Positions 18,965-50,601 of a stretch of DNA of 64,000 nucleotides are shown one piece after another; positions within the stretch are counted from its first letter, which is position 1, and each line of letters starts with the position of its first letter. This DNA is from Odiellus spinosus (lineage: Eukaryota > Arthropoda > Arachnida > Opiliones > Phalangiidae): positions 12,263,004 to 12,327,003 of the forward strand of contig OY987239.1 of assembly GCA_963920705.1 (NCBI GenBank), given 5' to 3'. The notes beneath the pieces were generated by a model. That model was not told where the DNA came from and ran no database searches. It saw only the letters and a program-made list of their open reading frames with translations. The translations under genes were made by a program, and so were the position numbers.

Positions 18965-19909
18965 GTATAATTTAAAAAAAAAACAAGATGGGCAAGCCCG
19001 AGTTATAACCACACCTCTTACGCTTGTATCCAAAAAAAAAAAAAAAATGGTCTCTTTAGTTACAGTTACTTGACTTTTCCTATTTTCGTCATCAAACAAT
19101 ACAGTAGCTGCACTACCCTCTACCAGGGGGTGCTGTTGCTAATAAGCATTTTATGATGTTTTGTCACAGTGTAGAGTATATTGAAATTTCAAAAGAGGAT
19201 CTTAATGAACAAAACATTTTTGAAAGTCCCGAACTACCAATGGTAAGTACATAAAAGCGTAAGGTTGCATTCTCCCTTTTACCTTTAGCTCTATTCTTCA
19301 AATTGCGTTGTCAATATTGCTAAGACTATCTCGAAATATTTTAGAACATGGACTTTCTTTGTTTGAGTTTCGATTATTCCGCTTTGGCGTCTTACGAGAA
19401 TTTAAATATCTCGAGGCTTAGCAGGATTTTACACCCCAGCATTACCTTCTTGTTGCCTCCCGCACCCGAACCAATTACCATCACCAGTTTGAATTTTCTG
19501 GCCATCGAGCCAATCGTAAGTTACGCGAACACAGTGTCGAAAAAAAAAGTCGATTCAGTATACATTCCCATCTATCATTTGTACAGGTTTCGTGGCTCTT
19601 GATATTTTTCTTGTTCTTGGTGTCCGCTGTCATGTCCCTAGCCATAACGCCCAGATACAAAGAGAAATCGCCGATAAAAAGATGTTGGCTACGTTTTAAA
19701 CATTTTGCCCAAAAATTCAAAACGCACTTGTGGCAAAATGCCAATCAATTCTTTTGCGAAGGTATAGTAATCATTTATCGAAGTTTAAGATTCAGCTTTC
19801 CTCAATTTGCTAACGTTAGTCTCGGGCAGACATTGTTACATCAAGAATTACAATGTATTTTAATGTTTTCAGGTTACCAGTGGGTGCCCCGGTCCCTTCC
19901 CTGGAGAAT

Positions 19910-19915
19910 CGCCTT
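19910..19915. repeat. Polinton target-site duplication, left copy (CGCCTT)
   Basis: CGCCTT immediately left of the element; the same six bases follow its right end at 34298-34303. IR-1 and IR-2 have this sequence once. Six-bp duplications are characteristic of Polinton/Maverick integration. Confidence 0.95.
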
Positions 19916-20328
19916 AGTAGTATATAAAGGGGGGTTCACCCTCACTTGGAGCCGTTGGAGCCGTTGGAGCCGACGGAGCCGACTCCATTTTGGATTTTGA
20001 ACGTCAAACGGAGCCGACGCCATTTTTAATTAAAAAAATTTTTTATTTTTTTTTTTTCTCGCTCCGGGAATCGAACCCGGGACCCATAGTTTGTGAGAGC
20101 GATGACGTAAACAACTTAGCTATTTCAGTTATCAGTTCTTTTCCTTAAACACCACATCGTTCACGTTGGATCAGACATTCGCGTACTATCGGTTAATAGA
20201 AGGGAAGGAGGGATACCCTCTTATCTCTATACTCGCGGACGTGGGTCAATAAAAGTCTTTGATTCACGGTTCTTCTTATCTCTATGTTCATATTTTCGGG
20301 TGTTATCACGTGATTGAAAGTTTAAATG
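19916..20328 (+). repeat. Polinton left terminal inverted repeat
   Basis: About 413 bp, matching the reverse complement of 33896-34297. The visible differences are one extra 9-bp GGAGCCGAC unit here, A/T-run lengths, and about one substitution (CACGGTTC versus CACGATTC). It includes short GGAGCC repeats near the tip and a tRNA-like segment. Confidence 0.95.
20061..20126 (-). other. tRNA-like segment in left TIR
   Basis: Read on the minus strand, it has a good T-arm/B box (CCGGGTTCGATTCCCGG) and an A-box-like TAGCTAAGTTG at tRNA spacing, and a CTCACAA that resembles a Val(CAC) anticodon loop. Anticodon and acceptor stems do not pair well, so it is a tRNA-derived or tRNA-mimicking sequence rather than a confident tRNA gene. 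Both internal promoter elements for RNA polymerase III are present in outline. Confidence 0.5.
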
Positions 20329-20706
20329 TAAAGGCGCGAAGATATGGGAAAAACTGTAAGATTTAGTATTTCTACTGTTTACGATATACCATATGAGGAT
20401 AGGGTTAACTATGAATTTCGTCAATTATGTATGTTTAGAATGCGTATTAAATGCGTGTACGAACCAATATTAAAACCAATACTGCAACTGAAACAAATGA
20501 AATATGAGTGATATGGGAAAACCCAACACGTCATTATATCAAAGGTCGCGTATTTTCATGGTAAAACATCTAGCTCCATCGTATAGATAAAGTCATTTTA
20601 CGAAACTCCTGATACTCATCTAGACCTGCACTCTTCTGGTAAGTTATTTTTTTTTAATTATGACATATATATTCAGTGATACTCCAATACCCTCTCATTT
20701 ATCGAT
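20329..20706. promoter_or_regulatory. Polinton left subterminal region / ATPase promoter
   Basis: About 380 bp between TIR and ATPase start with no coding frame. It must hold the promoter for the left-arm genes; TATATATT lies about 45 bp before the ATG. No defined motif beyond that. Confidence 0.4.
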
Positions 20707-21342
20707 ATGGATTTAAGTCTGCAACACCCTTTTAACGGACTGGTGGCTGGTGTAACGGGATGTGGAAAAAGCGTCTTTGTTGCGAAATTAATTGAGCACA
20801 AGGAAATTAGAATTTCGCCCCCACCCGAACGTATAGTTTGGTGTTATACTGAATACCAGGACAAACTGTTTAATTCCATATCGAGTCATACCCCAAGCGT
20901 GGAATTTCACGAGGGTCTATTGGATGTAGGCACTTTAAACGCCAACGTTAGAAACTTTGTTATATTAGACGACCTTTTATGCGAAATCGCTAATAACAAG
21001 GAAGTTACCAACTTGTTTATTCGAGGATCCCATCATCGAAATACGTCAGTACTAATTTTAATGCAAAACCTCTACTACCCAGGAAAGGAAATTCGAACCT
21101 TGAATCTCAACGCTCATTATCTGATAATTTTCAAAACGCCGAGAGACCAATCAGCGATTCTACATTTGGCGAAACAAATATCTCCAGTCAACAGCAAATA
21201 CGTTGTGGACGCGTTTAGACAAGCTACAGCCATCAGTTACGGATATCTATTCGTCGACCTCAAAGCTACGACCCCGGAAGATAGAAGACTAAAGACCGGG
21301 ATTTTACCAGGAGAACAAGCCGCCATTTTTCTACCAAAATGA
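20707..21342 (+). CDS. Polinton FtsK/HerA-type genome-packaging ATPase
   Basis: A 211-residue frame with Walker A at about residues 15-22 (GVTGCGKS) and a Walker B near residue 85 (NFVILDDLL). Size and motifs fit the short A32-like packaging ATPases of Polintons and related viruses, which drive the genome into the preformed capsid. The start is the first Met after the left subterminal region. The stop overlaps the next start (ATGA at 21339-21342). Motifs and context make the assignment firm; activity is inferred. Confidence 0.9.
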   Translation: MDLSLQHPFNGLVAGVTGCGKSVFVAKLIEHKEIRISPPPERIVWCYTEYQDKLFNSISSHTPSVEFHEGLLDVGTLNANVRNFVILDDLLCEIANNKEVTNLFIRGSHHRNTSVLILMQNLYYPGKEIRTLNLNAHYLIIFKTPRDQSAILHLAKQISPVNSKYVVDAFRQATAISYGYLFVDLKATTPEDRRLKTGILPGEQAAIFLPK

Positions 21343-21818
21343 CCGGAATAATCGAAGCAAACTTCTTCAGAGTTCAAGGCCAATGGATCGTAAAAGAAAT
21401 AACACTATTCGTGAAGGAGACGGGGGAACACGAGGTATGGATCTTTAAAGCACCATTCCCTTTCACGGACTTGTCGTCTAAGGATAAAAGGCAATGTCAA
21501 TGGCTGACGAGGAACAGTTGTGACTTACGCTGGGACGAAGGAGATCATCCATTCGAAACTCAGCCTGAAATTACCAAAATCATTCGAGAGAAAGCCAATA
21601 CTTTTATAACCAAAGGTTTAGAAAAATCTATCGTGTTATCAAGGTTTTTGAACACTGAAGTCGCTAACGCCGAAGATCTTGGTTGCCCGAGACTAGTAAC
21701 TATAATTTGTGGAACGCCTAGAAGTTGTACGTTTCACCGAGACGAAAACAATTGTACGCTCGTGAAAGCTGCCCGATTAGCTACATGGCTCCGCCGAAGA
21801 GAGTACACGAGCAATTAG
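21339..21818 (+). CDS. Polinton protein of unknown function, 159 aa
   Basis: I do not recognise a named domain. It overlaps the ATPase stop by four bases, and its end overlaps the start of the next gene by 34 bp, so it belongs to the compact left-arm cluster. The C-terminal third has Cys and His residues (CPRLVTIICG, CTFHRDENNC) followed by a helical WLRRRE, which might bind zinc. The N-terminal half looks like beta-strand sequence (WIVKEITLFV). Position next to the ATPase suggests a virion or packaging role; this is only inference. Confidence 0.7.
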   Translation: MTGIIEANFFRVQGQWIVKEITLFVKETGEHEVWIFKAPFPFTDLSSKDKRQCQWLTRNSCDLRWDEGDHPFETQPEITKIIREKANTFITKGLEKSIVLSRFLNTEVANAEDLGCPRLVTIICGTPRSCTFHRDENNCTLVKAARLATWLRRREYTSN

Positions 21819-22123
21819 ACTTTCTAAAATATCTGAGTTCGTGTAACGCGTGTCAGCGAAACGCCGCCATTAAATACGCGAGTAAAGAAGAATTAAAAAC
21901 CATCGCCGAATGTTGTATAAATATACTGCAGGGTAACGTTTCTCTCACAGATGACGAGAAGAAGCGACTGAAGAAGCATTGCAATTCCATACGTCGCGTG
22001 GCCAAGAAAAATACTCCTGCTAAACGAAGACAAATTTTAATTCAAAAAGGTGGATTTCTCCCAATATTACTTCCGATAATCAGTTCGATAGCAGGAGCTA
22101 TCCTATCTAAAGTTATCAATTAA
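21785..22123 (+). CDS. Small basic pX-like virion protein, 112 aa
   Basis: Starts at the ATG at 21785 (MAPPKRVHEQ); an upstream in-frame Met lies deeper inside the preceding gene and is less likely. The protein is basic, with a central run (KKNTPAKRRQILIQ) and a C-terminal hydrophobic tail beginning KGGFLPILLPIISSIAG. A basic body followed by a GGFLPxLxPxxxxIxG tail is a recurrent feature of small Polinton and adintovirus proteins compared with adenovirus core protein pX. It would be expected to condense DNA or associate with membranes. Family assignment is by pattern only. Confidence 0.7.
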   Translation: MAPPKRVHEQLDFLKYLSSCNACQRNAAIKYASKEELKTIAECCINILQGNVSLTDDEKKRLKKHCNSIRRVAKKNTPAKRRQILIQKGGFLPILLPIISSIAGAILSKVIN

Positions 22124-22125
22124 AG

Positions 22126-22746
22126 ATGGCGAAAAAAATGCTATTAATTTCCGAGGAGACGTTCCAAAGACTTAATTCGGAGAAAGACCTCAAAGTGGAT
22201 AAAACTTTGGAATTGGAAAAGGTCGATAAAATTAAAGACATTCTCGATGATCCTAATTTGAACAACACGGACAAAATTAATCGCTATAATCACGTGCTCT
22301 CGAGGGTTATTAATAAAAGATCGAAGAAAAAAGTTAAAAAACCGAAAATACAAAATTGGAGTGCGGAGATTGCTTCCGGCGTGCCGTCATATATGTCCTC
22401 GGAGTGTTTAGATTTATACAAGTGGTTAGAGTTAACATTGAAAATTAAATGGACTGACGCCGGGGAGTTGATTTACAACAAGCGTAGAGTCGTAGGATCG
22501 AACATCGTCGATCTCCTAGCTTATTCAGTATCAAAATCCAAGAAAAAAATCGCAGTCACGGGCTCGAAAGAGTTCTACGAATTGTTGTATAAAGTGAACG
22601 CGCCTAGATCTCTAATAAAAATCCGCAAACGTGACGTCATCCCACCCGAGAAGAGGGAATATAAAGTTGAAACGGAAGATGAGTATTATTCTGACGATAG
22701 CGGACCCATGAAGGGTCGCGGTTTCTGTAATTGGATTTCATTGTAA
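22126..22746 (+). CDS. Polinton protein of unknown function, 206 aa
   Basis: Begins two bases after the previous stop. The N-terminal half is charged and helical (EKVDKIKDILDD, KRSKKKVKKPK) and may bind nucleic acid. The middle has NWSAEIASGVP and NIVDLLAYSVSKSKKK stretches that look like conserved Polinton accessory sequence, but I cannot name the family. Near the C-terminus MKGRG fits the adenain cleavage consensus (M/I/L)xGx-G, which would make it a substrate of the element's own protease and hence a virion protein. An AATAAA follows at 22757. Confidence 0.7.
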   Translation: MAKKMLLISEETFQRLNSEKDLKVDKTLELEKVDKIKDILDDPNLNNTDKINRYNHVLSRVINKRSKKKVKKPKIQNWSAEIASGVPSYMSSECLDLYKWLELTLKIKWTDAGELIYNKRRVVGSNIVDLLAYSVSKSKKKIAVTGSKEFYELLYKVNAPRSLIKIRKRDVIPPEKREYKVETEDEYYSDDSGPMKGRGFCNWISL

Positions 22747-22756
22747 TATTTATACC

Positions 22757-22762
22757 AATAAA
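22757..22762 (+). terminator. Polyadenylation signal AATAAA after first left-arm gene block
   Basis: AATAAA 11 bp after the 206-aa frame, before the membrane-protein/integrase block; it suggests that the left arm is transcribed as at least two units. Confidence 0.5.
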
Positions 22763-22810
22763 ATACACTTGAATATATTTTCTCGATTCATTTATTAATT
22801 AGGCTTTGAC

Positions 22811-22999
22811 ATGGAGAGTGGTAATGTCGAGGCTGTCTCTGTAGGACTTTTAGCGTCTCTATTCGAGTCATTTATAAATTCTCCCAAGTTATTAACTGCA
22901 GTTTTAATTGTATTTATAATAATAATTATAGAAGTTAGCGATTTTGTATTCTGGCATTATAGTACTTCGAACAACTGTTCATTCAATGGAAGAACTTAA
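22811..22999 (+). CDS. Small putative membrane protein, 62 aa
   Basis: The frame has one strong hydrophobic segment (LLTAVLIVFIIIIIEV) after an N-terminal amphipathic stretch. It starts soon after the polyadenylation signal and overlaps the integrase start by 14 bp in another frame, which fits the element's packing. No homologue is recognised. It could instead be untranslated leader of the integrase mRNA. Confidence 0.45.
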   Translation: MESGNVEAVSVGLLASLFESFINSPKLLTAVLIVFIIIIIEVSDFVFWHYSTSNNCSFNGRT

Positions 23000-24056
23000 A
23001 AAAATATATAATAAGGTTTCGGATCCGGGCTCTTACGGTAGTGTTGACGGCTTATACCGAGCGGCTAAAGACCGAGGATTAAAGGTTACTGTCAGAGAAA
23101 TAAGCGATTTCCTGAAAACCCAAGATACTTATACGCTTCACAGGAGTGCGAGGAAACACTTCGCTAGAAATAAAACTATAGTCTACGGGATCGACGAACA
23201 GTGGCAAATAGACTTGGCTGATTTGAAGAGTATTACCAGATATAATAATGGTTTCCGTTATCTATTATGCTGTATCGACGTCTTCAGTAAGTTTGCCTTC
23301 GTGGTTGCGATCAAGGACAAGAAAGGAAAGACTATTCTCGGTGCGTTAAACGTCATTTTGGATTCAGGTCGTTCACCGAAACGAATCCAATCGGATCACG
23401 GTAATGAGTTTGTATGCAAGGAAGTACAAAACGAGTTAAAACGTAGAGGGATAAAGTTTTTCGCCCCTGAATCGGAACTGAAAGCGACGATAGTAGAGAG
23501 ATTTAACCGGACTTTGAAGACTCGAATGTATCGATATTTTACGGAAAATAATACCTTCAAATATACCAATGTTCTAAAAGAGATGGTGAAAGCCTATAAT
23601 CATAGTTATCATCGATCTATAAAGTGTAAACCCGTCGATGTCACACCAGCTACATCTAAACGTGTTTGGGAAAATCTATATGGTGACGTCGATTTCTCGA
23701 CTCCGCTTTCTTTCCCCTTTGATGTTGGTGACGTAGTTCGTATAAGTAAACACAAGAATCTCTTCGATAAGGGATACATACCCACATGGTCGGAAGAACT
23801 ATTCAAAATTTCCGAGAGATTAGCTCGTAGTCCTCCTGTATATAAGATACGCGACTTGAAAGAAGAGCTCATTACCGGGATTTTTTACCGAGAGCAACTA
23901 CAGAAAATTGGCAAGGACCTGAGTAACAGCGCTTTTAAAATCGAAAAAGTGTTGAAAAAACGACGCAAGGCTGACGGAAGTATCGAGAGATTCGTCCGCT
24001 GGAAAGGATACCCGCCATCATTCGACAGTTGGGTGCAGGAAATTGACCTTGCATGA
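22986..24056 (+). CDS. Polinton retroviral-type integrase with chromodomain
   Basis: 356 residues from MEELKK; 14 codons upstream there is another in-frame Met, but the chosen one gives the usual N-terminus. The catalytic triad is visible: D76 (in WQIDLADL), D137 (in QSDHGNEF) and E171 (in VERFNRTLK). A C-terminal chromodomain occupies about residues 309-356 (FKIEKVL ... RFVRWKGY ... DSWVQEIDL). The enzyme would integrate the linear element with a 6-bp staggered cut, consistent with the CGCCTT duplication. The chromodomain may steer it to histone marks. The stop overlaps the next ATG (ATGATGA). Integrity is complete. Confidence 0.95.
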   Translation: MEELKKIYNKVSDPGSYGSVDGLYRAAKDRGLKVTVREISDFLKTQDTYTLHRSARKHFARNKTIVYGIDEQWQIDLADLKSITRYNNGFRYLLCCIDVFSKFAFVVAIKDKKGKTILGALNVILDSGRSPKRIQSDHGNEFVCKEVQNELKRRGIKFFAPESELKATIVERFNRTLKTRMYRYFTENNTFKYTNVLKEMVKAYNHSYHRSIKCKPVDVTPATSKRVWENLYGDVDFSTPLSFPFDVGDVVRISKHKNLFDKGYIPTWSEELFKISERLARSPPVYKIRDLKEELITGIFYREQLQKIGKDLSNSAFKIEKVLKKRRKADGSIERFVRWKGYPPSFDSWVQEIDLA

Positions 24057-24892
24057 TGACGTTCTACATAACCCTACCGTCAGACAGTTCTATGAGTTAC
24101 TTTCCAGGGAATACAATCAGTAAATTCCGAACTCATTTGCCGGAATCAGTTAAATTACTAGGTCCGTACGAAGTGGCCTTGGTGGAATTCAGTTATCCCC
24201 GCACATGGAGCAATATGAGATCGTCGTGCTGGATATCGTTAACTAACCACGCGGAAAATATAAATAGCACGAGTCATTCGAGAGTGGTAGAACTCCCCGC
24301 GGGTTACTACGGGAATATAGAAGACCTATTGGAGCAACTCAATTACGACGAAGATGATATCTCGAACGTGACCATACTGAAAAAGGAGACGCCAGTCGAG
24401 GGTGATATGTTTGAGTCGGAGACGACGACGAATGTTAAATACACGTTTAGTTATATCGCGCGATTACGCCGTGTGGAAGTTTCCGTAAAACCGGATCACT
24501 CGTTAACTATACCGGGGGAGTTGGCGGTCATGTTGGGATTTACGAAAGACCATACAAAAACTACGACGATCGTCCACGCGAGAATAGCCAGTTATCCGGT
24601 GGATTTAGACGCGGGTCTACATTCACTCTTCATATATTCTGATATCGTTGAAAGTAGGGCTGTAGGTGACGTTCATGTTCCGCTTCTACGAATAACGAGC
24701 GTTCAAGGGAATGACGGGGATACGGTAGACAGAGAATTTTCACGTCCTCATTACCTCCCAGTTTCCTGCAATTCCTTTCAATCTATCGAAATTAACGTTA
24801 TGAGTGAAATGGGTGTACCCGTCAAGTTCGAAAGAGGTAAAGTTCACGCGACTCTACATTTTAGACCACGAAGAATGTGGTCGCCCTTATAA
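24053..24892 (+). CDS. Penton-like minor capsid protein (single jelly roll)
   Basis: 279 residues starting MMTFYITLPSDSS; the element FPGNTISKFRTHLP followed by GPYEVALVEFSYP is the characteristic N-terminus of the Polinton minor capsid protein, compared with adenovirus penton base and predicted to be a single jelly roll that forms the capsid vertices. The length fits. The start overlaps the integrase stop. The fold assignment rests on family pattern; no structure could be modelled here. Confidence 0.85.
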   Translation: MMTFYITLPSDSSMSYFPGNTISKFRTHLPESVKLLGPYEVALVEFSYPRTWSNMRSSCWISLTNHAENINSTSHSRVVELPAGYYGNIEDLLEQLNYDEDDISNVTILKKETPVEGDMFESETTTNVKYTFSYIARLRRVEVSVKPDHSLTIPGELAVMLGFTKDHTKTTTIVHARIASYPVDLDAGLHSLFIYSDIVESRAVGDVHVPLLRITSVQGNDGDTVDREFSRPHYLPVSCNSFQSIEINVMSEMGVPVKFERGKVHATLHFRPRRMWSPL

Positions 24893-24952
24893 ATAAGCCG
24901 ACAGTATGGACGTGCTCGCCATTCTTATCGAGAGAGTTAAACGAGACGCATC

Positions 24953-25438
24953 ATGAAGCAAAAACCGTCCTCCACCCAGTCGGACTACGATCGTCACTTC
25001 TTAAATCAAATTGGACACGGGATTAAGGTCGACTACGCTAAATATTTCCAAAGTCAAATAGGAAAGGGTTCTATACCCGTATACCAGGGTCTTCCCGTTC
25101 AACAAGGATACGGTCTAGGAAACTTTATCGCCTCGGCCTTCCGACGAGCCGTACCACTTTTGAAGAAGGGAGCCATGTATCTTGGGAAAAAACTGTTAAA
25201 TACTGGATCTAAAATCGTTACTGACGTAGCTAGTGGAATTCCCGTAAAATCCTCGGTTAAATCTCGAGGAAAAGACGCCGCGAGAGATGTCGTAATCAGT
25301 GCCGCGGACGAAATCGCTAGAATGACTGGAAATGGGCATAAAAGAAAGTGTAAGCGTCGAAGGCTAGTCAGTTCAACGACGAACAGGAAGAAGAGAAGAC
25401 CGTTCTTAAAACCCTCCGATATATTTTCTACAATATAA
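24953..25438 (+). CDS. pVI-like minor virion protein, 161 aa
   Basis: The N-terminal part has two similar segments (FLNQIGHGIKV, FQSQIGKGSIPV), then a GYGLGNFIASAFRRAVPLL amphipathic stretch, an Ala/Lys-rich helix and a strongly basic C-terminus (HKRKCKRRR). Small proteins of this layout next to the capsid genes in Polintons have been likened to adenovirus pVI, which links capsid and core. Its stop overlaps the capsid start (TAATG at 25436-25440). The assignment is by position and pattern. Confidence 0.7.
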   Translation: MKQKPSSTQSDYDRHFLNQIGHGIKVDYAKYFQSQIGKGSIPVYQGLPVQQGYGLGNFIASAFRRAVPLLKKGAMYLGKKLLNTGSKIVTDVASGIPVKSSVKSRGKDAARDVVISAADEIARMTGNGHKRKCKRRRLVSSTTNRKKRRPFLKPSDIFSTI

Positions 25439-26784
25439 TGGCTCATATCCATCCCGATTCCCAAGGTTCGGTTAGCTCCGAAGTCGAACTTTTCAACGTA
25501 CCGCTAACGAACGCTAGTATTGTGAGTGGAGAATGGGTTGAGTATAGTCCCATCTCGAACATTAACGAAAATTCAACTCTAACCTTCGCCGTGGCCGGAA
25601 ACTCCGATACGTACATTGATTTGTCCAAAACTTTGTTACATCTACAAGTTAGACTCGTCGACCCAGCGGACGGGAGAACAATTCCAGCGGCGGCAGTAAT
25701 CGATGCGGCTGGGGTAATCACCACACCGGCGGATGTGGTAGCGCCCGTGAATCTGTTTCATTCGAGCCTTTTTAGCGAGGTACACGTTTCCTTGGGTGAT
25801 AGATCGGTAACACCATCGCCGCAGAACTATGCCTACAAGGCCATGTTTCAAACTACCGTGACTTTTGGTGGACCTGCGAAAACGAGTTTTCTAACGGCTG
25901 CCATGTACTACAAGGATACTGCCGGAAAATTCAACACCCCGTCGGACAATGAAGGTTTCAAGAAAAGAGCAAGTTTCGCTAAACAAGGGACCATTGATAT
26001 GATTGGCGCGGTTCACACGGATTTGTGTCAACAGTCTCGTTTTATTCCGAACATGATTGACTTGAAATTTAAATTTATTAAAAGCTCCAACGAATTTTGT
26101 ATTCAAACCTTAGCGGGTGGCGTTAGATGGAAGGTACAATACGAACTCGCTTCCCTGTATATCAGAAAAGTAAAATTAACTCCCGAGATTACAATTGCCC
26201 ACGCCAAATGTCTCGAACTAGCTACCATGAAATATCCAATAACTCGAACGGAGTGTAACTCTTTTTCCATAAACAGTGGAACTAAAATCTGCGTTAGAGA
26301 TAATCTCTTTATGGGACAATTACCCAAACGGGTCCTTTTCGCTCTGGTAGAACAGAACGCCTATCTAGGCGATTATACCCAGTCACCCTTTAATTTCCAA
26401 CACTTTGATTTAAATCATATCGCTCTCTACCTCGACGGAACTAGCGTTCCTCACAAGCCTTTAACCCCTAATTTCGAGGGACATCAGTACATGAGATCGT
26501 ACACTAATCTTTTCACTCAAACATCCCAATGGTTCATTGACGAAGGGAACTTTATCTCACGCGAAGAGTTTCCTGGTGGGAACTGTATTTTCGTATTTGA
26601 TTTGAGTGCTGACCTCAGTTGTTCAGCTTCGCAATTTCAGTTGATAAAGAATGGTAATTTGCGCTTAGAATTAAAGTTCGCCAAGGATTTGCCGAAGACT
26701 GTTAGCGTATTATACTACGCTGAGTTTCAAAATTTAATTGAAATTGACAAAAACAGGAACGTTATTTACGATTATACCAATTAG
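25438..26784 (+). CDS. Major capsid protein (double jelly roll)
   Basis: 448 residues. The N-terminus (SSEVELFNVPLTNASIVSG, then EWVEYSPISNI and YIDLSKTLLHLQVRL) matches the signature of metazoan Polinton major capsid proteins, the group that includes C. elegans F54H12.2-like proteins. These are predicted hexon-like double jelly rolls that trimerise into icosahedral capsid faces. The frame is uninterrupted and begins with a one-base overlap with the pVI-like gene. It is compact but inside the range for the family. Confidence 0.9.
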   Translation: MAHIHPDSQGSVSSEVELFNVPLTNASIVSGEWVEYSPISNINENSTLTFAVAGNSDTYIDLSKTLLHLQVRLVDPADGRTIPAAAVIDAAGVITTPADVVAPVNLFHSSLFSEVHVSLGDRSVTPSPQNYAYKAMFQTTVTFGGPAKTSFLTAAMYYKDTAGKFNTPSDNEGFKKRASFAKQGTIDMIGAVHTDLCQQSRFIPNMIDLKFKFIKSSNEFCIQTLAGGVRWKVQYELASLYIRKVKLTPEITIAHAKCLELATMKYPITRTECNSFSINSGTKICVRDNLFMGQLPKRVLFALVEQNAYLGDYTQSPFNFQHFDLNHIALYLDGTSVPHKPLTPNFEGHQYMRSYTNLFTQTSQWFIDEGNFISREEFPGGNCIFVFDLSADLSCSASQFQLIKNGNLRLELKFAKDLPKTVSVLYYAEFQNLIEIDKNRNVIYDYTN

Positions 26785-26787
26785 AAA

Positions 26788-27252
26788 ATGGACTCTCAGC
26801 AGTTAGCTAAAATAATGGAAAGAGATTCGTTCACTAAAGGTCTGTTTCGAGGTATTTTCGCAGCCGATAATTTACCCAAAACTGTTAAAACCTTTCCTTC
26901 ACTCTATATTGTAAATACGGGATTATCACATACCGAAGGCGAACATTGGACGGCTATCTATTTTTCTAGTAATAAGAATACAGAGTTCTTTGACAGTTTC
27001 GGTAACCCTCCCGACATGTTTAAATTTAACGATTTTGTGGAAAGAAACAGTATAACTGTAACATTTAACTCCAAACAATTACAAGGGAACTTTAGTATGA
27101 CTTGTGGCGGATATTGTGTTTATTTTGCATTGTATAGATGTAGAGGTGTTAAATTGTTTAATATATGTGCAAGATTTAAAAAAGATAAAAATGTTAATGA
27201 TAAAATGATTTCTGAATTTATGTATAAGAGATTTTCAATAAACTTTTTTTAA
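26788..27252 (+). CDS. Adenain-like maturation cysteine protease
   Basis: 154 residues with the peptidase C5 arrangement: catalytic His53 (GEHWTAIYF), acidic residue Asp69 (EFFDSFG), oxyanion-hole Gln99 (KQLQG) and nucleophile Cys106 (SMTCGGYC). In adenoviruses the enzyme cleaves core and minor capsid precursors at (M/I/L)xGx-G or (M/I/L)xGG-x sites during virion maturation. The gene starts three bases after the capsid stop. An AATAAA at 27237 overlaps its end and probably serves the whole capsid-protease transcript. Confidence 0.93.
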   Translation: MDSQQLAKIMERDSFTKGLFRGIFAADNLPKTVKTFPSLYIVNTGLSHTEGEHWTAIYFSSNKNTEFFDSFGNPPDMFKFNDFVERNSITVTFNSKQLQGNFSMTCGGYCVYFALYRCRGVKLFNICARFKKDKNVNDKMISEFMYKRFSINFF

Positions 27253-27600
27253 CAAAAATACTTGTGTTTTTATCTAACCTAACCTAGCTTAATCTAACCT
27301 ACCCTAATTTAAACTAACTTAACCTAACCCAACCTAATTTACACTAAGTTTCACATAGTCGCGGGGCGCGCGCGATTCAAATTTCAAACGCGCGCGGTTA
27401 ATTTACCAACGCGTCGCGGCGTGGTAGTCGCGGGCAGCCCTTCCACCCTGACCTCTGGTTTAGGCTTAAGTATGAATAATAAGCTTAAATATAAATAATT
27501 TCAAAGTTTGATTTCACACTATATTTATTATAAAAACATTTAAATATTCAATAATACAAGATTATCATAAAAAAAAAAATATATATATATATATATTGAA
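27253..27600. other. Junction of the two Polinton gene arms
   Basis: About 350 bp between convergent genes. It holds AACCTAACCTA runs like arthropod TTAGG-type repeats, then a short GC-rich patch (GCGGGGCGCGCGCG, ACGCGTCGCGGCG), then AT-rich sequence with a TA microsatellite near 27581-27596. No coding sequence. Confidence 0.7.
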
Positions 27601-27601
27601 T

Positions 27602-30600
27602 TTATTCCTTTGGAATTCTGAAATGACCATGGGCGAATGTCGAGATTCCATCTATAATGTGACGCTTGTCATCACATGGATTTAGGCAAAGTTTATTTTG
27701 TTGTACCGTGAAGAGTTCGTGTTTTTTGCTTACTATACGTTTCATCGATTCTACGGTTAATTTGTGTTTAAGTAAACAATCGCGATACTGGGAATGGCGC
27801 ACGTTCTTTTTCACCACTCTTCGGCATATTCCTTTAGCGGTTTTCTTTTCTCCTTTGGCGGAAAGAATAGAGTACATTTTGGGTCTTAAACCACAAAATT
27901 CCTGAATCGGAGTTCCGTCTAACTCATCTTTGAACTTGCCGAGGACTTTCTTGTTGCCATCGCTATGTAGTGGATGATCCTTTGGATATCCGGAGAAGTC
28001 GTAGTGTTCTTTCCGTTCGGCAAAGTCCTGATACAGGTCATCCGTGCGAATGTCGTAGGTTAGGGAATCCGTGTCTGTAAATAAGAGTTTGGCGGCGTCC
28101 CCGTATTGAGCTCGGATGACGTCGTAATGAAATTGGTACATTAAGAGTTTCGACAGATCGAGGACGGCAAATCCGGTATATATCGGTCTGTTCAATGTGA
28201 GAGTCTTCTGTCGGCAATGAATTCCGACCAAATCGTTATTGAAGATGGTGAAATGGTCGAATGTTGGAGAGCTGGCCTTTTTGATGGCCCGTTCTGGCGT
28301 CTGGACGAGATGGAAGTTGATACGATTCCTGAGATTTTCCATGGTTTTTCCTGAAATTGAGAACATTATTAGTATTTAATTTAGGTTAGGTTAGGTTAGG
28401 TTACGTACCATAGACAGCGTTATTCATCAATTTGAAAAAGTCTTTTTCAAAGTCGTTGATTGCCAACTTTCTCTTCTCCGTGTTAAAGTCAATGAAAGGT
28501 TTCAACCACGGTCCTTGTGTAAAAACTAATACACGATGAATCTTAGTAATTACCATCCCCTTGGACACATAGTACTTCAGATTTCGGTAATGGATGACAT
28601 ATTTCTCTTTCGTGTAAAGGGAAGGCACGAGTTTCGGGAAGCTGTCAGTCTCCTTTAATCCGAGTTCTTTTAATTGCTCTTTGGAGAAAGCTGATAATTC
28701 ATCGGTGGTGATGACCCGCTTCTCCGGTGCCAGCGGGTAGCAATTATGCTCGTCATGTAGATGCTCCGGGTATTCTAGGTCGACTTCCAATATGAATCCG
28801 GTATCCGCATCGTCAGGATGAATAAGGATAATTTCTTCTGTAAAATCAGGACAGGCCTGTATCCACTTGAAATCTCGCATTGGAAGGTGGTCAGACATGG
28901 CCCTTCCGTAGAGGTTATTGCAATCTGTCAGAAAGAAATGAATAAGCTAATGGAATTTTCGAATAAATGAAAAAAACTTACCAACATAAGCGATGTAGTT
29001 ACTCGGCTTGGATGGGTCAAAGGTTCCCGGTAAGTGTTTGTTGTTGGCATGGGCGAATCTATGACTGATCATAGATACCCCTCCACGTATCCCTTTCTCA
29101 ATGAAAAGGTGCATGTCAGGGTCTATCAGTAGGTCTAATTTAACACCCGTCATGCTTAGGGCACTTTCCCAAGCAAACCCAGGCCCAGTAAAAGCGTGAG
29201 CGTAGTCAAGTTTGTAGAACTCCATACACATGAACCGAAAGCTTTGAAAAACATCCGCCAGAAGCAGCACATCCGATTGTGCGTAAAGGTTGTGGTAATC
29301 ACCTATAAAAATGACAGAGAATATTATTTCTTTAACCTAACCTAACAATAATATTTGACTTACCCAGTTTTTCCAAGTTAAATTTCGTCCAGACCGTCTG
29401 CGCGTGTATATAGTCCTCTTCACTGATGTGTTCATCCGTTAAGGCATTGAAAAATGCATCCTTGGGTGGTAATTCCGTCTCATCGAATTTAGATTCATCG
29501 TCCATATAGTCATACGGATATACCTGCTTACGCAGTAATAATTGGACTTCGTCGGGGATATAGACTGAATTCAGACACGTGAATTTTTCCGGTCCGCTCT
29601 TAGCCAGATTTGTGACTAAAGTTTCTAGAGATGCTGGCATAAATCTGATTGTGTCCAAAAATCTCAGATGACCAAGCGAGAAGGATATATAGCGTTCCTC
29701 ACTAGTAGGGATGCATTTAATGTCTTGATCCTTGATTAGTCCTATTTTGTACATTATTAAATTCGCGTCGTAGCTGAAAAAAAAAACAAAAAAAACACAT
29801 ATGTATAAATATATATATAAAGTTCGAAAAAGAACGAAAATAATAATAATATATATTTACCGGGAAAGGTTGTGAAGAAATACAGGGATGAACTTCGGTG
29901 GCTTGAGTTTTAAATTGCACGAGTTGTGCGCCGCCCCTCTAAACACACCTGTCGTATGGTCGTGGTCGCGTACTTTATAATCCTTGTCGTTAAAAGGATT
30001 ACCACATATGTAGCAGTTTCTAGCCGCTAAAAACTTTAACTCCTCAGCTTGACTAAGATTCATGGGTATGTTTTCCCGAATCTTTTCTTCCAATATGGAA
30101 TATTCCAATAACATGTTTTCAAGAAACTTGTCAGTCGCGTCCTTTCCCCGATATGTGACGGGTTTTGATGGTGATCCGTCCGGACCAACAATGACGTAGG
30201 AAAAACCACAGGATATATGGTTGGATAGTGTAGTTGTAGATGAGAGGGAAGCGTCTGGTAAACATGTTGAAACCTTCGGTAAGATAGCTTCGAAATCGGC
30301 GTAGATAACGTACTTCATCTAAAAAGAAAAATAAATCAAGATAATTAAAAAAAAAAAAAAAAAAAAAAAAATAATAATAATAATAATAATAAGAACTTAC
30401 TCTTTGCCGCCAGCCGATCTTCTTAAATTCCAAGACCGGTTCCTTTACCGGCATAAGGGTTTTTTGAGCTCCGTGATCCTTACAATCTTCGACGTGATTA
30501 TCACGGTTCACCTCGGCGTTAGGTCCCGAAAAACGATGTAAGCAGAATCGGCAATAATGAGTCGCACACCGATGCTTGGTGAAGTCGGACAATAACCGAC

Positions 30601-31948
30601 TTAAATTACGGATAAGACAGTAGTGTTTTTTATCCCCTTGTTTTAAAAGTAGAAGGTCGACTTCGCGATCCTTCGGAGCCGCGTTCTTACTAATAAACTG
30701 TGGGAATATATTTTTCTCGTAACAAAAAATGTTGATACACAGATTATTTTTTTTCTCAAATTTTTCGATGCTTGCTACGTTTATTTCAACCGGAAATTTT
30801 AAATCGTAAATATCTAACTCGTTTTCGAATTCTCTGTATTTTTGCACACGATTGGGATTATCGTTGGGTTGAATGGGGTGTAAGTGTGCTAAAATTGACC
30901 ATAAAAAACACCTATTATCTGTGTTTTTTATGTTTAAGACGGCCTTTTTATCTGCTAGTTTTTTGGGTAGTGCTATAAATGATCCACCGACTAACGGAAG
31001 ATACGTGATAATATTAATCTGCATAAAGAGAATTCTATCTAAAGTAAACCCGCTACCCTTATTCACGAGTTCTTCTATACACTTTTTTATCGTCTCAATA
31101 CAGGAGTCGATTTGCCGTTGAATAATGTCCGGTGTTAGAGTTATTTGCATTTCACTTCGGTGATATGCGAAAAATTCAGCTTCTTGGTTAGTGTTCGCCA
31201 ATTCGCGGACGTATCGAACTCGAATTGCGATATACCATTTCACTCCACGGTCCCTGGTTAATTTATCCCTTAAATAGTTTTCTATAGCTTGACGGTGGCG
31301 ATTAATGTACTCCTCCGGGTCGGTCACCACAGTTCCCGGTGTGAAACGTGCGCATAGTATAGCATGGCCCAATGCTTCAACCTCTTCCAGTTGGTCCGGC
31401 GCCTGAGGATCTTGCGGGATTTCTATATTACCTTCGGGTTGATTTTCTAATTGGTCCATGAAATTGTACAGATCTCGGTCTTCTTGTGAGCTCGGCGTAT
31501 CCGTCGGAAATTCTAAGTGGTCCATAAAGTCCTGTAATCCCTCATCGTCTTGATTCGTCAGAAAGTCCTTTTCCATCTCTGTCATCTCGTCAGCGACCGG
31601 TGCATTGGGTGGCGGTGGTGTTGAAGCATCAATGATTGAAGATGAAGCGTGGGATGTTGAAGGATGCGAAGAAGTAGAGGACGTTGAAGCATCAATGATT
31701 GAATGAGAGGTTGAAGGTTTAGAAGATCTGATCCTCTTAGCTGGAGTGGTTTCAGCGGATGTCCGACGCTTCGATGTATCCGAGGTCGAAGAATGGGTCT
31801 GTGTGTGTTTGGTCAGCACATCTCGTCTTGTAAAGGATTGCTGACATATCGTACACGAGAAAGTAATTTTCTCATGTTTTTCACGTTGATGTCTCAACAA
31901 ATTTTTATTCGACGAGAACTTAGCGTGGCAAATATCACACATAACCAT
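27602..31948 (-). CDS. Polinton protein-primed DNA polymerase B, six exons
   Basis: Exons 31948-30401, 30318-29861, 29773-29364, 29302-28982, 28924-28409 and 28350-27602 join in frame to 1,333 codons plus stop, through five GT-AG introns of 57-87 bp. The N-terminus has two C2H2 zinc fingers (CDICHAKF..., CTICQQSF...), a Ser/Thr/Pro-rich linker, and a domain usual for Polinton polymerases (NRCFLWSILAHLHP). A Cys/His cluster follows (CATHYCRFC). The 3'-5' exonuclease has its first motif as YADFEAI and contains an embedded CYICGNPF/HDHTTG zinc module. Polymerase motifs are present: the Asp-containing A motif in exon 5, B (KLMNNAVY) and C (FTDTDS). It replicates the linear element from its ends by protein priming. 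No disabling mutation was seen. Confidence 0.93.
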
Positions 31949-32532
31949 TTTTGAATTGAAACTACATATATAAACACATTGGATTAGTTTCACACTAAAA
32001 ATAATAAACATAACCCTTTTAAGGGTATAATAGAATGAAATAACTTTTATCTTACAACCATTTTAAGGTTATAACCACCATAAAATAACTATTTCTTGCT
32101 AGTATAACCCTAGAGTCTATGTAAAATAACTGTCATGCTTACCAATACTGAACTTTTCACGATGCTTGAAGAGAGAGCGGTAGATTTACTACAAGCCTTT
32201 ACTCGGAGATGGAGTTGGAGATTGTGATGATTAAGATTTAGAAAATTCACTATTTATACCCTTTCTTATCTTAAACAATGAGCCACTGATTAATTAGGAA
32301 GCGCTAGTTTTTTTCACACTCTGAAAAGACCTTTGAGTTCTATTTGAACTTTGATTTGAAATAACGCCAGCCATTTTGAATTTAACCATGGGAAAATCAA
32401 ATATTTAATTGACTCCTATCCTAGTGAATTATTTCCTTAGCAGAATATCGAAATATTCGGTTTTATTTGCATATTCGCTATCAATATTAAGAAATGGCAT
32501 TCTTTGGTGTTTAAAATCATAATTTTATTTGT
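31949..32532. promoter_or_regulatory. Spacer upstream of DNA polymerase gene
   Basis: About 580 bp between the polymerase start and the end of the PC4-like gene, both on the minus strand. It contains repeated TTATAACCnTTTTAAGG-type motifs at about 32010-32110, possibly promoter elements. No coding frame is credible. Confidence 0.4.
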
Positions 32533-33078
32533 TTACAAATATTGTTTCGAAATACAAATAATTTTAGTCACCATTTGCTTACAAAAATCGAAACTTAAAA
32601 AAGTTGAATTATTAAAGATTTCAGTAATTAATTGGATATTTAAATTATTTACAGCATTTGCAAAGTTAATTTCAACACGTTCCGCCCAATCATGTATAAG
32701 ACAATCATGTTGGTTTTGTGATGGGTGGTTAATGAGACATCCGTTGCATGAGTTTTTAATAAGTTCCGTTAGCTGTAGAATAACGATTTCCTTAATAGCT
32801 TGGAAAACTTTCTTAGATTCGTTAAGCATGATTACAACTTGTTGATGTTTTTCTAGGAGTTTCTCCCATAGAACTGGTCCTATAGCAAATCCATTTTTAG
32901 TGGGGAATAACATCCCATAGTTCTTTCCGTTCCCGGTCGTCATTTCGCGGATATTAAGCATCTTCCGGTCCTGGTATGACTTGAGTTCAACCCGTTTATT
33001 GTTTGACCCTTCCAAGAAAACTGACGAAGGACTTTCGCCCTCGTTTTGGAAGTATTGCGTCCTAGAAATATGAGTCAT
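32533..33078 (-). CDS. PC4-like ssDNA-binding protein, 181 aa
   Basis: The first gene of the right arm. Residues of about 25-70 resemble the PC4/SUB1 fold: VELKSYQDRKMLNIREMT, a short loop, then LFPTKNGFAIGPVLWEKLLE, matching the PC4 pattern of an IREY strand, a PTKKGI turn and a W-containing helix. PC4 proteins bind single-stranded DNA as dimers. The C-terminal half has CNGCLINHPSQNQHDCLIHD, a Cys/His motif that may bind zinc. Next to the polymerase, a replication role (ssDNA protection or transcription coactivation) is a reasonable inference. The start Met is at 33078. Confidence 0.75.
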   Translation of the reverse strand: MTHISRTQYFQNEGESPSSVFLEGSNNKRVELKSYQDRKMLNIREMTTGNGKNYGMLFPTKNGFAIGPVLWEKLLEKHQQVVIMLNESKKVFQAIKEIVILQLTELIKNSCNGCLINHPSQNQHDCLIHDWAERVEINFANAVNNLNIQLITEIFNNSTFLSFDFCKQMVTKIICISKQYL

Positions 33079-33088
33079 ATCAGTTGTG

Positions 33089-33402
33089 AAATAGGTTTTA
33101 CCAATGACGTGTAGGGTTTTACCAAGCGATTCAGCGTCAAATCAGTACTTGAGTTGGGAAATAGGTTTTACCAATGACGCGTAGGTTTTTACCAAGCGTC
33201 ATATCAGTACTTGAACTTGTGAAATAGGCTTTCCCCAATGACGTGTTGGGATTTTATCAGGATATTTCCCAATGATTACTTGAAAAAAACCGACGTATTA
33301 GGCTTAGGAACTTAGGATTTCCCCAATGACGTGTTGGGGTTTACCACGTGTTTAAACATATGGATTCGAATTTCCAATGACGTGTTGGGTTTAACCACGA
33401 GC
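33089..33402. repeat. Subterminal repeats CCAATGACGTGTTGGG in Polinton right end
   Basis: Four or five imperfect copies of a CCAATGACGTGTTGGG-like motif (some as ACCAATGACGCGTAGG) spaced by 35-90 bp, often preceded by GAAATAGG and followed by TTTACCA. Each has a CREB/ATF-like TGACGTG core. A second pair of longer repeats (CATACACGTTGTAA ... GTTCACCAACTTGTTTT) follows at about 33425-33500 and 33550-33620. Confidence 0.75.
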
Positions 33403-33895
33403 TCTAATTGTATATGTATTTCAATTTTCATACACGTTGTAAATAAGCCTTTTCAATTTTAATTTGGGATCGTGATGTTCACCAACTTGTTTTAACCACT
33501 TGTTTCAACTTGTAGTTGACCCAGCGTTTACTTATGATTTGTTTAATTTTCATACACGTTGTAATTAGGCCTAACTTTCCAATTTTAATTTGTGATCGTG
33601 GTGTTCACCAACTTGTTTTGGGGATTATTATTTCAATATCAATTTAGACAAATAATCGTATATTTGCCGTTTAAAATTCTTGTTGGGTATCTTTCACAAT
33701 GATTACTTTGAGATATTCTTGTAGTTATTTGTTAAGATATTTGAATATCCATCTATTTATTTTTCCATTGGGTTTTGGGATAAGACCTGGCATAGGAGAT
33801 AACACGATAAAAGACCCGCGCGAAATTCGAAAACGATAAAGGTTTAAAGAGGTTTCGGTATAGGTTATAGATCCACATTTGATTTGGCACCTTAT

Positions 33896-34297
33896 CATTT
33901 AAACTTTCAATCACGTGATAACACCCGAAAATATGAACATAGAGATAAGAAGAATCGTGAATCAAAGACTTTTATTGACCCACGTCCGCGAGTATAGAGA
34001 TAAGAGGGTATCCCTCCTTCCCTTCTATTAACCGATAGTACGCGAATGTCTGATCCAACGTGAACGATGTGGTGTTTAAGGAAAAGAACTGATAACTGAA
34101 ATAGCTAAGTTGTTTACGTCATCGCTCTCACAAACTATGGGTCCCGGGTTCGATTCCCGGAGCGAGAAAAAAAAAATAAAAAAAATTTTTAATTAAAAAT
34201 GGCGTCGGCTCCGTTTGACGTTCAAAATCCAAAATGGAGTCGGCTCCAACGGCTCCAACGGCTCCAAGTGAGGGTGAACCCCCCTTTATATACTACT
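33896..34297 (-). repeat. Polinton right terminal inverted repeat
   Basis: About 402 bp, the near-identical inverse of the left repeat, ending CCTTTATATACTACT next to the CGCCTT duplication. Confidence 0.95.
34100..34166 (+). other. tRNA-like segment in right TIR
   Basis: Inverted copy of the left-TIR segment with the same B box and A-box-like sequence and apparently no differences. It is followed by A/T-runs that could act as polymerase III terminators on the opposite strand. Confidence 0.5.
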
Positions 34298-35246
34298 CGC
34301 CTTCGTGAGCTGGTTGTTGGGAGTCATGTTTGTCACTTTCGAAATCTCGAGTTATCTCAAGTCGGAATTCTCCGAAATCAAATACACTAGAGTGGATACC
34401 ATCGACGACCTCCTGAAGCAAGAGGGAAAAATTAAAATTGGATTAATGGAAGGCGAAGTCCAGGACATGCTTGTCGCCAGAAAGGTAATGTTCCAGATAA
34501 AAGCTTCGTCCATTCAACCTTGCAAAATGACACCGATGGTTTAACTCCCATTCGAACCGCAGGCTTTAACTGAACCGAAATTCCAAAGACTGGAAGAGAT
34601 ACTGAATGGCGAACGGGACATTGGAGAAAAGATGGACATACTGGAATTGTTCACGGGTGAAGTTTTTGAGCAAGTGGCCAATCGGAAACTGATTTTAATT
34701 TCTGATCAAATTGGGGTTTTATGCGCCATGAGTCATCACTTTTTCAATCAAGAAACCCTCTTCGACTTCAAGGAGATCTTTTATTTCTCCGAGGCGATTG
34801 AGCAGAGCTACGATGTCGCCCTTTTCTCGACCAGTTTCGTGGGAACACCACAATCCGCAGTCATTAACGAATTGTAAGTTTGACAGAAACACGCTTGAAA
34901 ACAAACTCCACACTCACCTTAGAATTTTAGATGAAGGCCTTTTTAATTTGCATTTAGGGACTACCGACTGCGAAGAATAAGAAATTTTCTAACGTAAATA
35001 ATTCCTTGGTGTAATAGGTTGACAATTTACTTTGAATGCAAGTTGATACAACCGGATGTACAGCGCGTATTGTTCATGATCGATATTCTACGATGGTCAG
35101 AGCCCGCGCAGTTGGAAACGAATCAATTAACCCTGAAGGGAGCGGAAAGCGTCATCGTACTCTACTTGATCGGAAACGCCATCGCCATCGTCTACTTTCT
35201 AATCGCCACACTAACGACTCTGCTCATAAATCTCTATAAAAACTAA

Positions 35247-36384: not shown

Positions 36385-36723
36385 CAGAAGCCGATGAAAC
36401 CCTCCTTTGAAGTTTATTACTCCCGGGGGTCTTGTCTACCCCTCTCTGTATGGGTTAGTTTCAAAAAGCGCGATTCGTACGCCTCCTAACGGTAGATATT
36501 TTCGGAGCCGGAGTTCGTCCACCGAATATCTCTAGCAGCCTCGGAGTTCGTCAAAAAAACGTCGTCGTTTGTGGAGAGAGAGAATTTCCAATTTTCCGTA
36601 GACAGGGGGGATGAAGTAGGACCCCTTCTAACTCGTAAAATTGGGAATTTTACCCATACAGAGAGGAACGCTATATCGAACATTAGAGTAGTAGATTTCA
36701 AAGAAGGGTTTCATCGGCTTCTG
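36385..36723. mobile_element. MITE family A copy 2 (339 bp)
   Basis: CAGAAGCCGATG ends; 7-bp duplication TTCAAAC at 36378-36384 and 36724-36730. It is intergenic, between IR-3 and P450-A. Confidence 0.93.
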
Positions 36724-36730
36724 TTCAAAC

Positions 36731-50306: not shown

Positions 50307-50313
50307 GTCTGTC

Positions 50314-50594: not shown

Positions 50595-50601
50595 GTCTGT
50601 C

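What the first reader, a model, noticed from the sequence alone, without database searches (positions are those of the whole stretch)
19910..34303. A complete, apparently undamaged Polinton inserted in a pore-region exon of an ionotropic receptor
Both boundaries can be read to the base: AG...CT ends, a 6-bp CGCCTT duplication, and host exon pieces of 43 and 181 bp that add to the 224 bp of exon 6 in the two paralogues. Only about one substitution, one 9-bp unit and A/T-run lengths separate the 0.4-kb TIRs, and all element genes and the rest of the receptor are open. This fits a very recent insertion, possibly still segregating, and an element that could be mobile or virus-forming. Exonic insertion with an otherwise open host gene is a natural gene-disruption event in a chemoreceptor family.
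Basis: partly seen in the sequence, partly recalled or inferred. Interest (0 to 1): 0.9.

Follow-up and report, generated by a model that had tools for sequence, protein, structure and literature searches.

The report
Virus-like Polinton inside a receptor-gene exon
A 14.4-kb virus-like mobile element of the Polinton kind sits inside, and so breaks, an exon of an animal's receptor-like gene; it belongs to a large, probably recently active population in that genome, whose polymerase gene is split by introns and which includes mirror-image offshoots.

Summary
The boundaries hold to the base. Window 19916-34297 (14,382 bp) starts AGTAGT, ends ACTACT, has ~0.4-kb inverted repeats and is flanked by CGCCTT; taking the flanks together restores a 224-bp exon that two neighbouring paralogues carry uninterrupted. 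It is a Polinton/Maverick with integrase-chromodomain, ATPase, double-jelly-roll capsid protein, adenovirus-type protease and polymerase B gene. Corrections: the polymerase gene is open only as six exons with five short GT-AG introns, seen at the same positions in six other copies; the PC4-like gene lacks an N-terminal part that five of ten other copies examined have. The receptor assignment is weak (Lig_chan below cut-off). The element is one of many: at least 35 full-length, stop-free capsid genes >=96% identical in this genome. Capsid genes are under purifying selection (dN/dS 0.015-0.071 in 11 comparisons), and capsid and replication modules have been exchanged. Recency fits the repeats (1 substitution in ~400 bp), but the assembly shows no empty allele and segregation is untested. 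The most unusual by-product is a set of palindromic 'mirror' Polintons: three loci share one palindrome, each with its own 6-bp duplication, and their arms evolve in concert. Membership is standard; introns and mirror derivatives make it a variant.

The parts
19873..19915 (+). left part (43 bp) of the broken receptor-like exon 6, ending in the target-site copy CGCCTT (19910-19915)
   Evidence: splice acceptor TTTTCAG before 19873
34298..34303 (+). right copy of the target-site duplication CGCCTT
34304..34484 (+). right part (181 bp) of the receptor-like exon 6
   Evidence: one place in the assembly is 100%, next best 92%
19916..20328 (+). left terminal inverted repeat
33896..34297 (-). right terminal inverted repeat
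20067..20122 (-). tRNA-like A-box/B-box module in the left TIR, pointing to the element end (B box 20067-20077, A box 20112-20122)
   Evidence: box consensus recalled
34102..34157 (+). tRNA-like A-box/B-box module in the right TIR (A box 34102-34112, B box 34147-34157)
   Evidence: (T-arm match 34143-34160)
20707..21342 (+). packaging ATPase (Adeno_IVa2, FtsK and Pox_A32 profiles, all below cut-off)
21339..21818 (+). open reading frame of unknown function, conserved in other copies
21785..22123 (+). small protein with adenovirus pX/mu-like stretch (below cut-off)
22126..22746 (+). open reading frame of unknown function, conserved in other copies
22986..24056 (+). retrovirus-type (rve) integrase with C-terminal chromodomain
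24053..24892 (+). presumed penton (minor capsid) protein; name by position and recalled likeness, no profile match
24953..25438 (+). small protein of unknown function, conserved in other copies
25438..26784 (+). major capsid protein, double jelly roll
26788..27252 (+). adenovirus-type (C5) protease, Pfam below cut-off
30401..32011 (-). PolB exon 1 (C2H2 zinc fingers at N terminus)
29861..30318 (-). PolB exon 2 (exonuclease motif recalled; Endonuclease_7 profile)
29364..29773 (-). PolB exon 3
28982..29302 (-). PolB exon 4
28409..28924 (-). PolB exon 5 (polymerase motifs A and B, recalled)
27602..28350 (-). PolB exon 6 (polymerase motif C, recalled)
32533..33078 (-). PC4-like (p15 coactivator) gene; lacks an N-terminal part that five of ten other copies examined have in full
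11787..12011 (+). uninterrupted homologous exon of paralogue 1 (paralogous empty site)
14858..15082 (+). uninterrupted homologous exon of paralogue 2 (paralogous empty site)

Best explanation
Window 19916-34297 is a Polinton (Maverick), a virus-like self-synthesising DNA element, that its own or a sister's chromodomain integrase inserted into exon 6 of the third gene of a tandem receptor-like cluster, duplicating CGCCTT and breaking the gene (anatomy shown; the enzyme's part inferred). The element most likely replicates in the nucleus: PolB mRNA is spliced by the host (inferred from five GT-AG stretches at conserved positions), the polymerase copies the linear element by protein priming from its AGTAGT ends (inferred from family knowledge), the capsid, ATPase and protease genes package it or are kept by selection on a packaged stage (inferred from dN/dS), and the integrase inserts copies with 6-bp duplications. 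It belongs to a large, recombining, probably recently active population in the same genome that also yields palindromic derivatives.
For: Boundaries, duplication, TIRs and empty paralogous sites; same termini and the same 6 bp on both sides at 9 of 9 bounded copies; integrase and chromodomain above cut-off; capsid protein model matches double-jelly-roll capsids, e.g. Sputnik 3j26 E 4e-16 and mavirus 6g44 E 8e-15; PC4 profile; introns at the same places in other copies: all 5 junctions read in C8b, C17b, C12 and C8c, 4 of 5 in C8a and C5; 35 of 99 listed capsid matches are full length, >=96% identical and stop-free, window copy included; capsid dN/dS 0.015-0.071 in 11 comparisons with the window copy, one of which (C15) has a stop.
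Against: PolB was not recognised piece by piece: no polymerase profile in Pfam for exons 1-6 or in NCBIfam for exons 2-6, none in PHROGs for exons 5 and 6, no polymerase in the PDB for exons 5 and 6, and a single-sequence model of exon 6 failed; its assignment rests on recalled motif order and position. ATPase, pX and protease profile scores are below Pfam cut-offs. PC4-like gene may be shortened. Protease dN/dS against C8a and C8b is 0.94-0.95, on only 5 changes each. No relative in IMG/VR. No transcript, virion or excision data.
Confidence: 0.9

Rival explanations
1. The insertion is older and fixed: the receptor-like gene was lost long ago and TIR similarity only reflects copying of one TIR from the other at replication.
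For: TIR divergence interval reaches 1.4%; no empty allele in the assembly; PC4-like gene may already be shortened; copies read for comparison differ by 2-4% in many bins.
Against: Receptor exons 5-8 are still open with usual splice sites; point estimate is one substitution in ~400 bp.
Confidence: 0.3
2. The junctions are an assembly mis-join.
For: Repeated elements are prone to mis-joins; one other copy is split over two contigs.
Against: CGCCTT at both sides, joined flanks restore a 224-bp open exon, and 8 other bounded copies show the same anatomy with other duplications.
Confidence: 0.02
3. PolB is a pseudogene interrupted by stops and frameshifts rather than by introns.
For: No single frame; stops at the ends of each stop-to-stop frame.
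Against: Each interruption is a 57-87 nt A/T-rich stretch bounded by GT and AG that keeps phase, and the same positions carry GT-AG stretches of other lengths in six copies whose PolB exons are 46-100% identical in protein.
Confidence: 0.03
4. The mirror elements (C3, C7, C149) are assembly artefacts, or their arm identity is simple gene conversion after insertion rather than a replication product.
For: Palindromes can arise in read processing; gene conversion between arms also keeps arms alike (both from general knowledge).
Against: Three loci share one palindrome with different duplications CATATT, GAGCTG, TATAGA; arms are not identical in C149 and C3 (4 and 6 substitutions); 109 symmetric against 8 arm-specific differences. 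Gene conversion after insertion is not excluded.
Confidence: 0.2

Closest known systems
Polinton/Maverick elements of vertebrates (Barreat and Katzourakis 2021, PMC8097293; passages and one section read)
   Same: (AGT)2//(ACT)2 ends, 6-bp duplications, TIRs of similar size, two gene modules on different strands pointing to the centre, same kinds of core genes, purifying selection
   Different: Intact vertebrate elements are reported there as intronless; here PolB has five introns; there the ATPase is in the PolB module, here with the capsid genes; PC4-like gene and tRNA-like TIR module here, not looked for there
Polintoviruses (Krupovic, Bamford and Koonin 2014, PMC4028283; passages read)
   Same: double-jelly-roll capsid protein, packaging ATPase, adenovirus-type protease, rve integrase
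   Different: penton could not be verified by profile here
Adintoviruses (PMC11071296; passages read)
   Same: integrase with C-terminal chromodomain, adenovirus-like structural genes, mixing of capsid and polymerase lineages
   Different: OTU-like N-terminal domain of PolB not detected; exon 1 matched C2H2 zinc fingers
Snapback subgenomic AAV genomes (PMC8235507; abstract read)
   Same: snapback part-genomes made of one end of the parent, as in the mirror elements of this genome
   Different: a parvovirus; here integrated elements with transposon duplications

Membership tests
Polinton/Maverick | 6-bp target-site duplication | tested here: met
   CGCCTT; 9 of 9 bounded copies
Polinton/Maverick | terminal inverted repeats with (AGT)2//(ACT)2 or similar ends | tested here: met
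   motif from PMC8097293
Polinton/Maverick | rve-type integrase | tested here: met
   PF00665 E 7.6e-12, above cut-off; retroviral integrases in PDB
Polinton/Maverick | double-jelly-roll major capsid protein | tested here: met
   AlphaFold model pTM 0.82 and Foldseek matches; by sequence alone Pfam DJR-like domain was below cut-off and the PDB profile search found no capsid
[quoted passage not shown]
   motifs in the expected order by eye (motifs recalled); no polymerase match piece by piece
Polinton/Maverick | FtsK/A32-like packaging ATPase | tested here: inconclusive
   three related Pfam matches, all below cut-off
Polinton/Maverick | adenovirus-type cysteine protease | tested here: inconclusive
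   PF00770 E 7e-4, 19.7 bits against cut-off 21.3
Polinton/Maverick | penton (single jelly roll) minor capsid protein | tested here: inconclusive
   no Pfam or PHROGs match; not folded
Polinton/Maverick | intronless genes (reported for intact vertebrate elements; not a definition of the whole family) | tested here: not met
   five introns in PolB
Adintovirus | PolB with N-terminal OTU-like domain | tested here: inconclusive
   exon 1 matched mainly C2H2 zinc fingers, no OTU profile
Adintovirus | integrase with C-terminal chromodomain | tested here: met
   PF00385 above cut-off, CBX7/HP1 in PDB
Ionotropic receptor (host gene) | Lig_chan transmembrane and pore domain | tested here: inconclusive
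   PF00060 E 3.6e-4, 20.8 bits against cut-off 30.8; no homologue in protein collection or receptor in PDB

The most novel reading that the evidence does not exclude
This genome carries a lineage of 'mirror' Polintons: palindromes of one element end (TIR, PC4-like gene, a zinc-finger frame like the start of PolB, then other DNA) with no capsid, integrase or polymerase core found, that move as units on the enzymes of complete Polintons. Their two arms stay identical because each round of replication copies one arm from the other through a snap-back strand, so they are satellites of a DNA transposon-virus, comparable to snapback defective genomes of viruses.
Probability: 0.5. Interest if true: 0.8.

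Novelty: new variant of a known kind. Interest (0 to 1): 0.6.

Why it matters
Viral particles of Mavericks have not been observed, according to the abstract of PMC8097293. A host genome with dozens of near-identical, stop-free capsid genes under purifying selection, an exonic insertion, conserved introns in the polymerase gene and palindromic satellites is a place where nuclear replication, packaging and defective-genome formation by such elements become directly testable. The exonic insertion is also a natural loss of a receptor-like gene that can be scored in individuals.

Tried and rejected
Considered and rejected: mis-joined scaffold (duplication and restored exon); PolB as a pseudogene (conserved GT-AG positions); a 1-bp deletion in the receptor gene as an earlier inactivation (read as lying in an intron; the contrary reading is given in the observation check). 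Led nowhere: relatives in IMG/VR with the capsid protein, its alignment and PolB exons 5 and 6, none found; host identification (PEX2 neighbour best match 45%, to Centruroides; receptor no match); tRNA search, 0 genes; PolB profile, PDB and structure tests. Paper searches on Polinton/Maverick with palindrome, hairpin, non-autonomous or defective interfering (15 of 77 listed; 12 of 14 listed) and with introns or splicing (15 of 75 listed; 2 of 2; 10 of 10) listed no title on palindromic Polintons or on introns in arthropod Polintons; passages of one review (PMC6431247) did not mention them. Subscription papers such as the founding descriptions of 2006-2007 are, as far as I know, not held, so absence from print is not claimed.

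Unanswered: copy counts for the central spacer (window 27253-27601), for the palindrome centre (L043:6280-6501) and for DNA_pol_B_2 in the whole genome, because the genome search was busy; the number of mirror elements and the closest copy of this element are therefore not known.
Full report
Check of the observation. The sequence at 19910-19915 and 34298-34303 reads CGCCTT on both sides of a stretch that begins AGTAGT and ends ACTACT. The two ends align as inverted repeats of 413 and 402 bp with one 9-bp unit, a 2-bp length change and two A/T exchanges in an A/T tract, and one G/A substitution. Joining the flanks gives an open exon of 43 + 181 = 224 bp; the same exon is uninterrupted in two paralogues about 8 and 5 kb upstream, each 81% identical in protein over the 75-residue exon query. 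Exons 5-8 of the broken gene are open by eye with usual splice sites; exons 1-3 were not checked. A 1-bp difference upstream of exon 5 lies in a stretch that I read as an intron (GTAAGT...TACAG, 71 nt here, 72 in paralogue 1). Against this, paralogue 1 is open straight through it, so on the other reading the broken gene would carry a frameshift; for it, paralogue 2 has a 1-bp change in the same stretch. A query of the right exon part finds itself once at 100% and 17 other places, the best at 92% (18 of 18 candidates scored), so the assembly shows no second, empty copy and the gene belongs to a family.

What the broken gene is. A 361-residue peptide of exons 4-8 gives only a below-cut-off Pfam match to the ligand-gated channel domain (E 3.6e-4, 20.8 bits against 30.8), none of 2234 word-sharing candidates reached E 1e-3, and no receptor in the PDB was matched. 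'Divergent ionotropic-receptor-like gene' is the furthest the evidence goes.

What the element is. On the + strand lie an ATPase (three related profiles below cut-off), a pX/mu-like small protein (below cut-off), an rve integrase with a C-terminal chromodomain (both above cut-off), the capsid protein and a C5-type protease just under its cut-off. The capsid protein has 380 homologues at E <= 1e-3 among 5370 candidates; a model from a 20-sequence alignment (pTM 0.82) matches double-jelly-roll capsids of iridovirus, Sputnik, PBCV-1 and mavirus, although a profile search of PDB sequences found no capsid. On the - strand lie a PC4-domain gene and PolB.

PolB introns. No single frame covers PolB. 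Five interruptions of 82, 87, 61, 57 and 58 nt are bounded by GT and AG, are poor in G+C (9-29%), and leaving them out keeps phase over 4065 coding nt. Other copies carry GT-AG stretches at the same places: 5 of 5 junctions readable in C8b, C17b, C12 and C8c, and 4 of 5 in C8a and C5 (the other one was split by a piece border or an exon end was not found), although their PolB exons are 46-100% identical in protein to the window's. Barreat and Katzourakis report no introns in intact vertebrate Mavericks, in agreement, they write, with Kapitonov and Jurka 2006 (PMC8097293, passages). Polymerase identity itself rests on recalled motifs seen by eye in order (YADFEA, HNLS-R-YD across exons 2/3, YHNLYAQSD, DCNNLYG, LMNNAVYG, DTDS); profile, PDB and model tests of the pieces were negative or useless.

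Possible damage. The PC4-like frame starts downstream of a ~60-residue N-terminal part that copies C17a, C17b, C3, C7 and C149 have in full and C8a in part; it was not found in the window, nor in C8b, C12, C8c or C5, the last three being divergent. In the window, short CACGTCATTGG-type repeats stand there. The PC4 domain itself is present. 'Undamaged' is thus not certain. Other copies are broken in places too: for example single stops in PolB exon 1 of C8a and C8b.

The population. A search of the host genome with the capsid protein gave 99 matches; only 94 of 942 candidates were scored, so this is a lower bound. By my count of the listing, 35 of 99 are full length, at least 96% identical and without a stop, the window copy included; 21 more are a second group at 55-56% identity, 19 of them without a stop. 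Between the window copy and 11 others, capsid dN/dS is 0.015-0.071 with dS 0.057-0.130 (one of the 11, from C15, has a stop); ATPase 0-0.078 in 7, integrase 0.05-0.27 in 8, penton 0.07-0.13 in 7; for the protease (6 copies) the ratio is 0.23-0.95 on few changes. Only copies covering 95% of a gene entered these counts. Selection on capsid genes between copies is expected if a packaged stage or shared capsids matter for spread; it does not prove virions.

Modular exchange. Towards C17b, C12, C8c and C5 the structural half is about 90-100% identical in the 500-bp bins from 20,916 to 27,415 that could be read, while the half from about 27,416 on is 62-91%; C17a shows the same drop where it could be read, most of its PolB being absent. 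PolB exons 3, 5 and 6 are at dS 0.65 to saturation there where compared, but 0-0.025 towards C8a and C8b. So a boundary of exchange lies near the spacer between the two convergent modules.

Where copies land. Five of 9 bounded copies lie in tandem arrays on both sides (23-, 14-, 135-, 16- and 23-bp units; the 16-bp array is short, 101 and 42 bp; the 135-bp unit carries a tRNA-Gln-like sequence, named from memory), against 8064 of 49,606 window bases in arrays (binomial P 0.008 for 5 of 9). The background is one window only. Guidance by the integrase chromodomain is an inference; the exon insertion would be an exception.

Mirror elements. C7 14806950-14819846, C149 872999-885839 and C3 6381853-6394095 are palindromes with arms of about 6.1-6.4 kb, TIRs at both ends and duplications GAGCTG, TATAGA and CATATT. 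C7 and C149 share the arm end and a 37-bp loop, which is inverted between them; C3 keeps the same left arm end with part of the centre lost. Their arms hold the TIR, a PC4-like gene and a zinc-finger frame 34-37% identical to the start of PolB; no match to the capsid, integrase, ATPase, protease or other structural genes or to PolB exons 2-6 was found. Substitutions between the two arms: 0 in C7, 4 in C149, 6 in C3. Over 5921 columns without gaps 109 differences are shared by both arms of an element (91 C3, 10 C149, 8 C7), 8 are arm-specific and 1 is other. C15 (duplication GACGCG) and C13 are palindromes of the other end, with structural genes: C15 arms 98.2-99.5% alike with a 1.2-kb stretch missing from one arm; C13 99.8% over 5.4 kb but 93.8% over the outer 1.1 kb, its ends and duplication not determined. 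C1 and C4 show inverted capsid-gene pairs in the listing that were not examined. Replication through a snap-back strand would explain symmetric change; conversion between arms after insertion is the rival.

A tRNA-like module. Each TIR holds an 11-nt A-box-like and an 11-nt B-box-like sequence 34 nt apart, pointing outward, followed by an A-rich tract and a T run (consensus recalled). A B box was found in 21 of 21 ends examined (many are two ends of one element), the strict A+B pattern in 12 of 21, a T run after the B box in 19 of 21; ends with otherwise divergent TIRs keep the B box. Rfam gives only a T-arm match to tmRNA, ARAGORN no tRNA, and the strand folds only modestly better than shuffles (z -1.84). 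Pol III transcription is a guess.

Age. One substitution in ~400 TIR bases gives a 95% interval of 6e-5 to 0.014; at a recalled rate of 3e-9 per site and generation that is 0.01 to 2.3 million generations, 0.4 at the point estimate. TIRs may differ at birth, so this is loose.

Verdict. A real, complete-looking, perhaps slightly reduced Polinton in an exon: a member of a known kind, with introns and a satellite of mirror derivatives that make it a variant worth following.

Noticed in passing
G000 C7:14806950-14819846 (L043, L044), C149:872999-885839 (L047, L048), C3:6381853-6394095 (L041, L042): Three loci carry the same ~12-13 kb palindromic Polinton derivative, each with its own 6-bp duplication; arms evolve in concert.
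   Followed up: partly
G000 C15:2928311-2939573 (L039, L040), C13 about 19324350-19339304 (L045, L046): Palindromes of the other (structural) end of the element; C15 arms 98.2-99.5% alike, C13 99.8% over 5.4 kb and 93.8% over the outer 1.1 kb.
   Followed up: partly
window 20067-20122 (-) and 34102-34157 (+): tRNA-like A-box/B-box module in both TIRs, pointing outward; B box kept in divergent TIRs.
   Followed up: partly
G000 C17:6136716-6147571 (L012, L013): A copy inserted in a tandem array of 135-bp units that carry a tRNA-Gln-like sequence (named from memory), duplication GCGATC.
   Followed up: partly
G000 capsid matches at 55-56% identity, e.g. C7:14527846-14529162: A second group of at least 21 capsid genes, 19 without stops, suggests another Polinton expansion in the same genome.
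   Followed up: no
window 36368-36735, 39548-39905, 42069-42430, 43337-43700, 48276-48644, 62696-63061 and 7656-7958, 17496-17787, 37861-38157, 40586-40889, 47591-47885, 50307-50598, 52438-52742: Two families of ~0.3-0.35 kb dispersed repeats, roughly 90-99% alike, many copies in this window.
   Followed up: no
window 27272-27347 and PolB introns 29303-29363, 28351-28408: CCTAA/TTAGG-like telomere-type repeats in the central spacer and two introns of the element.
   Followed up: no
L029-L033, L035 and L027, L028, L036-L038: Two sets of TIR fragments with one shared flank each, so probably carried along by other amplified repeats.
   Followed up: no
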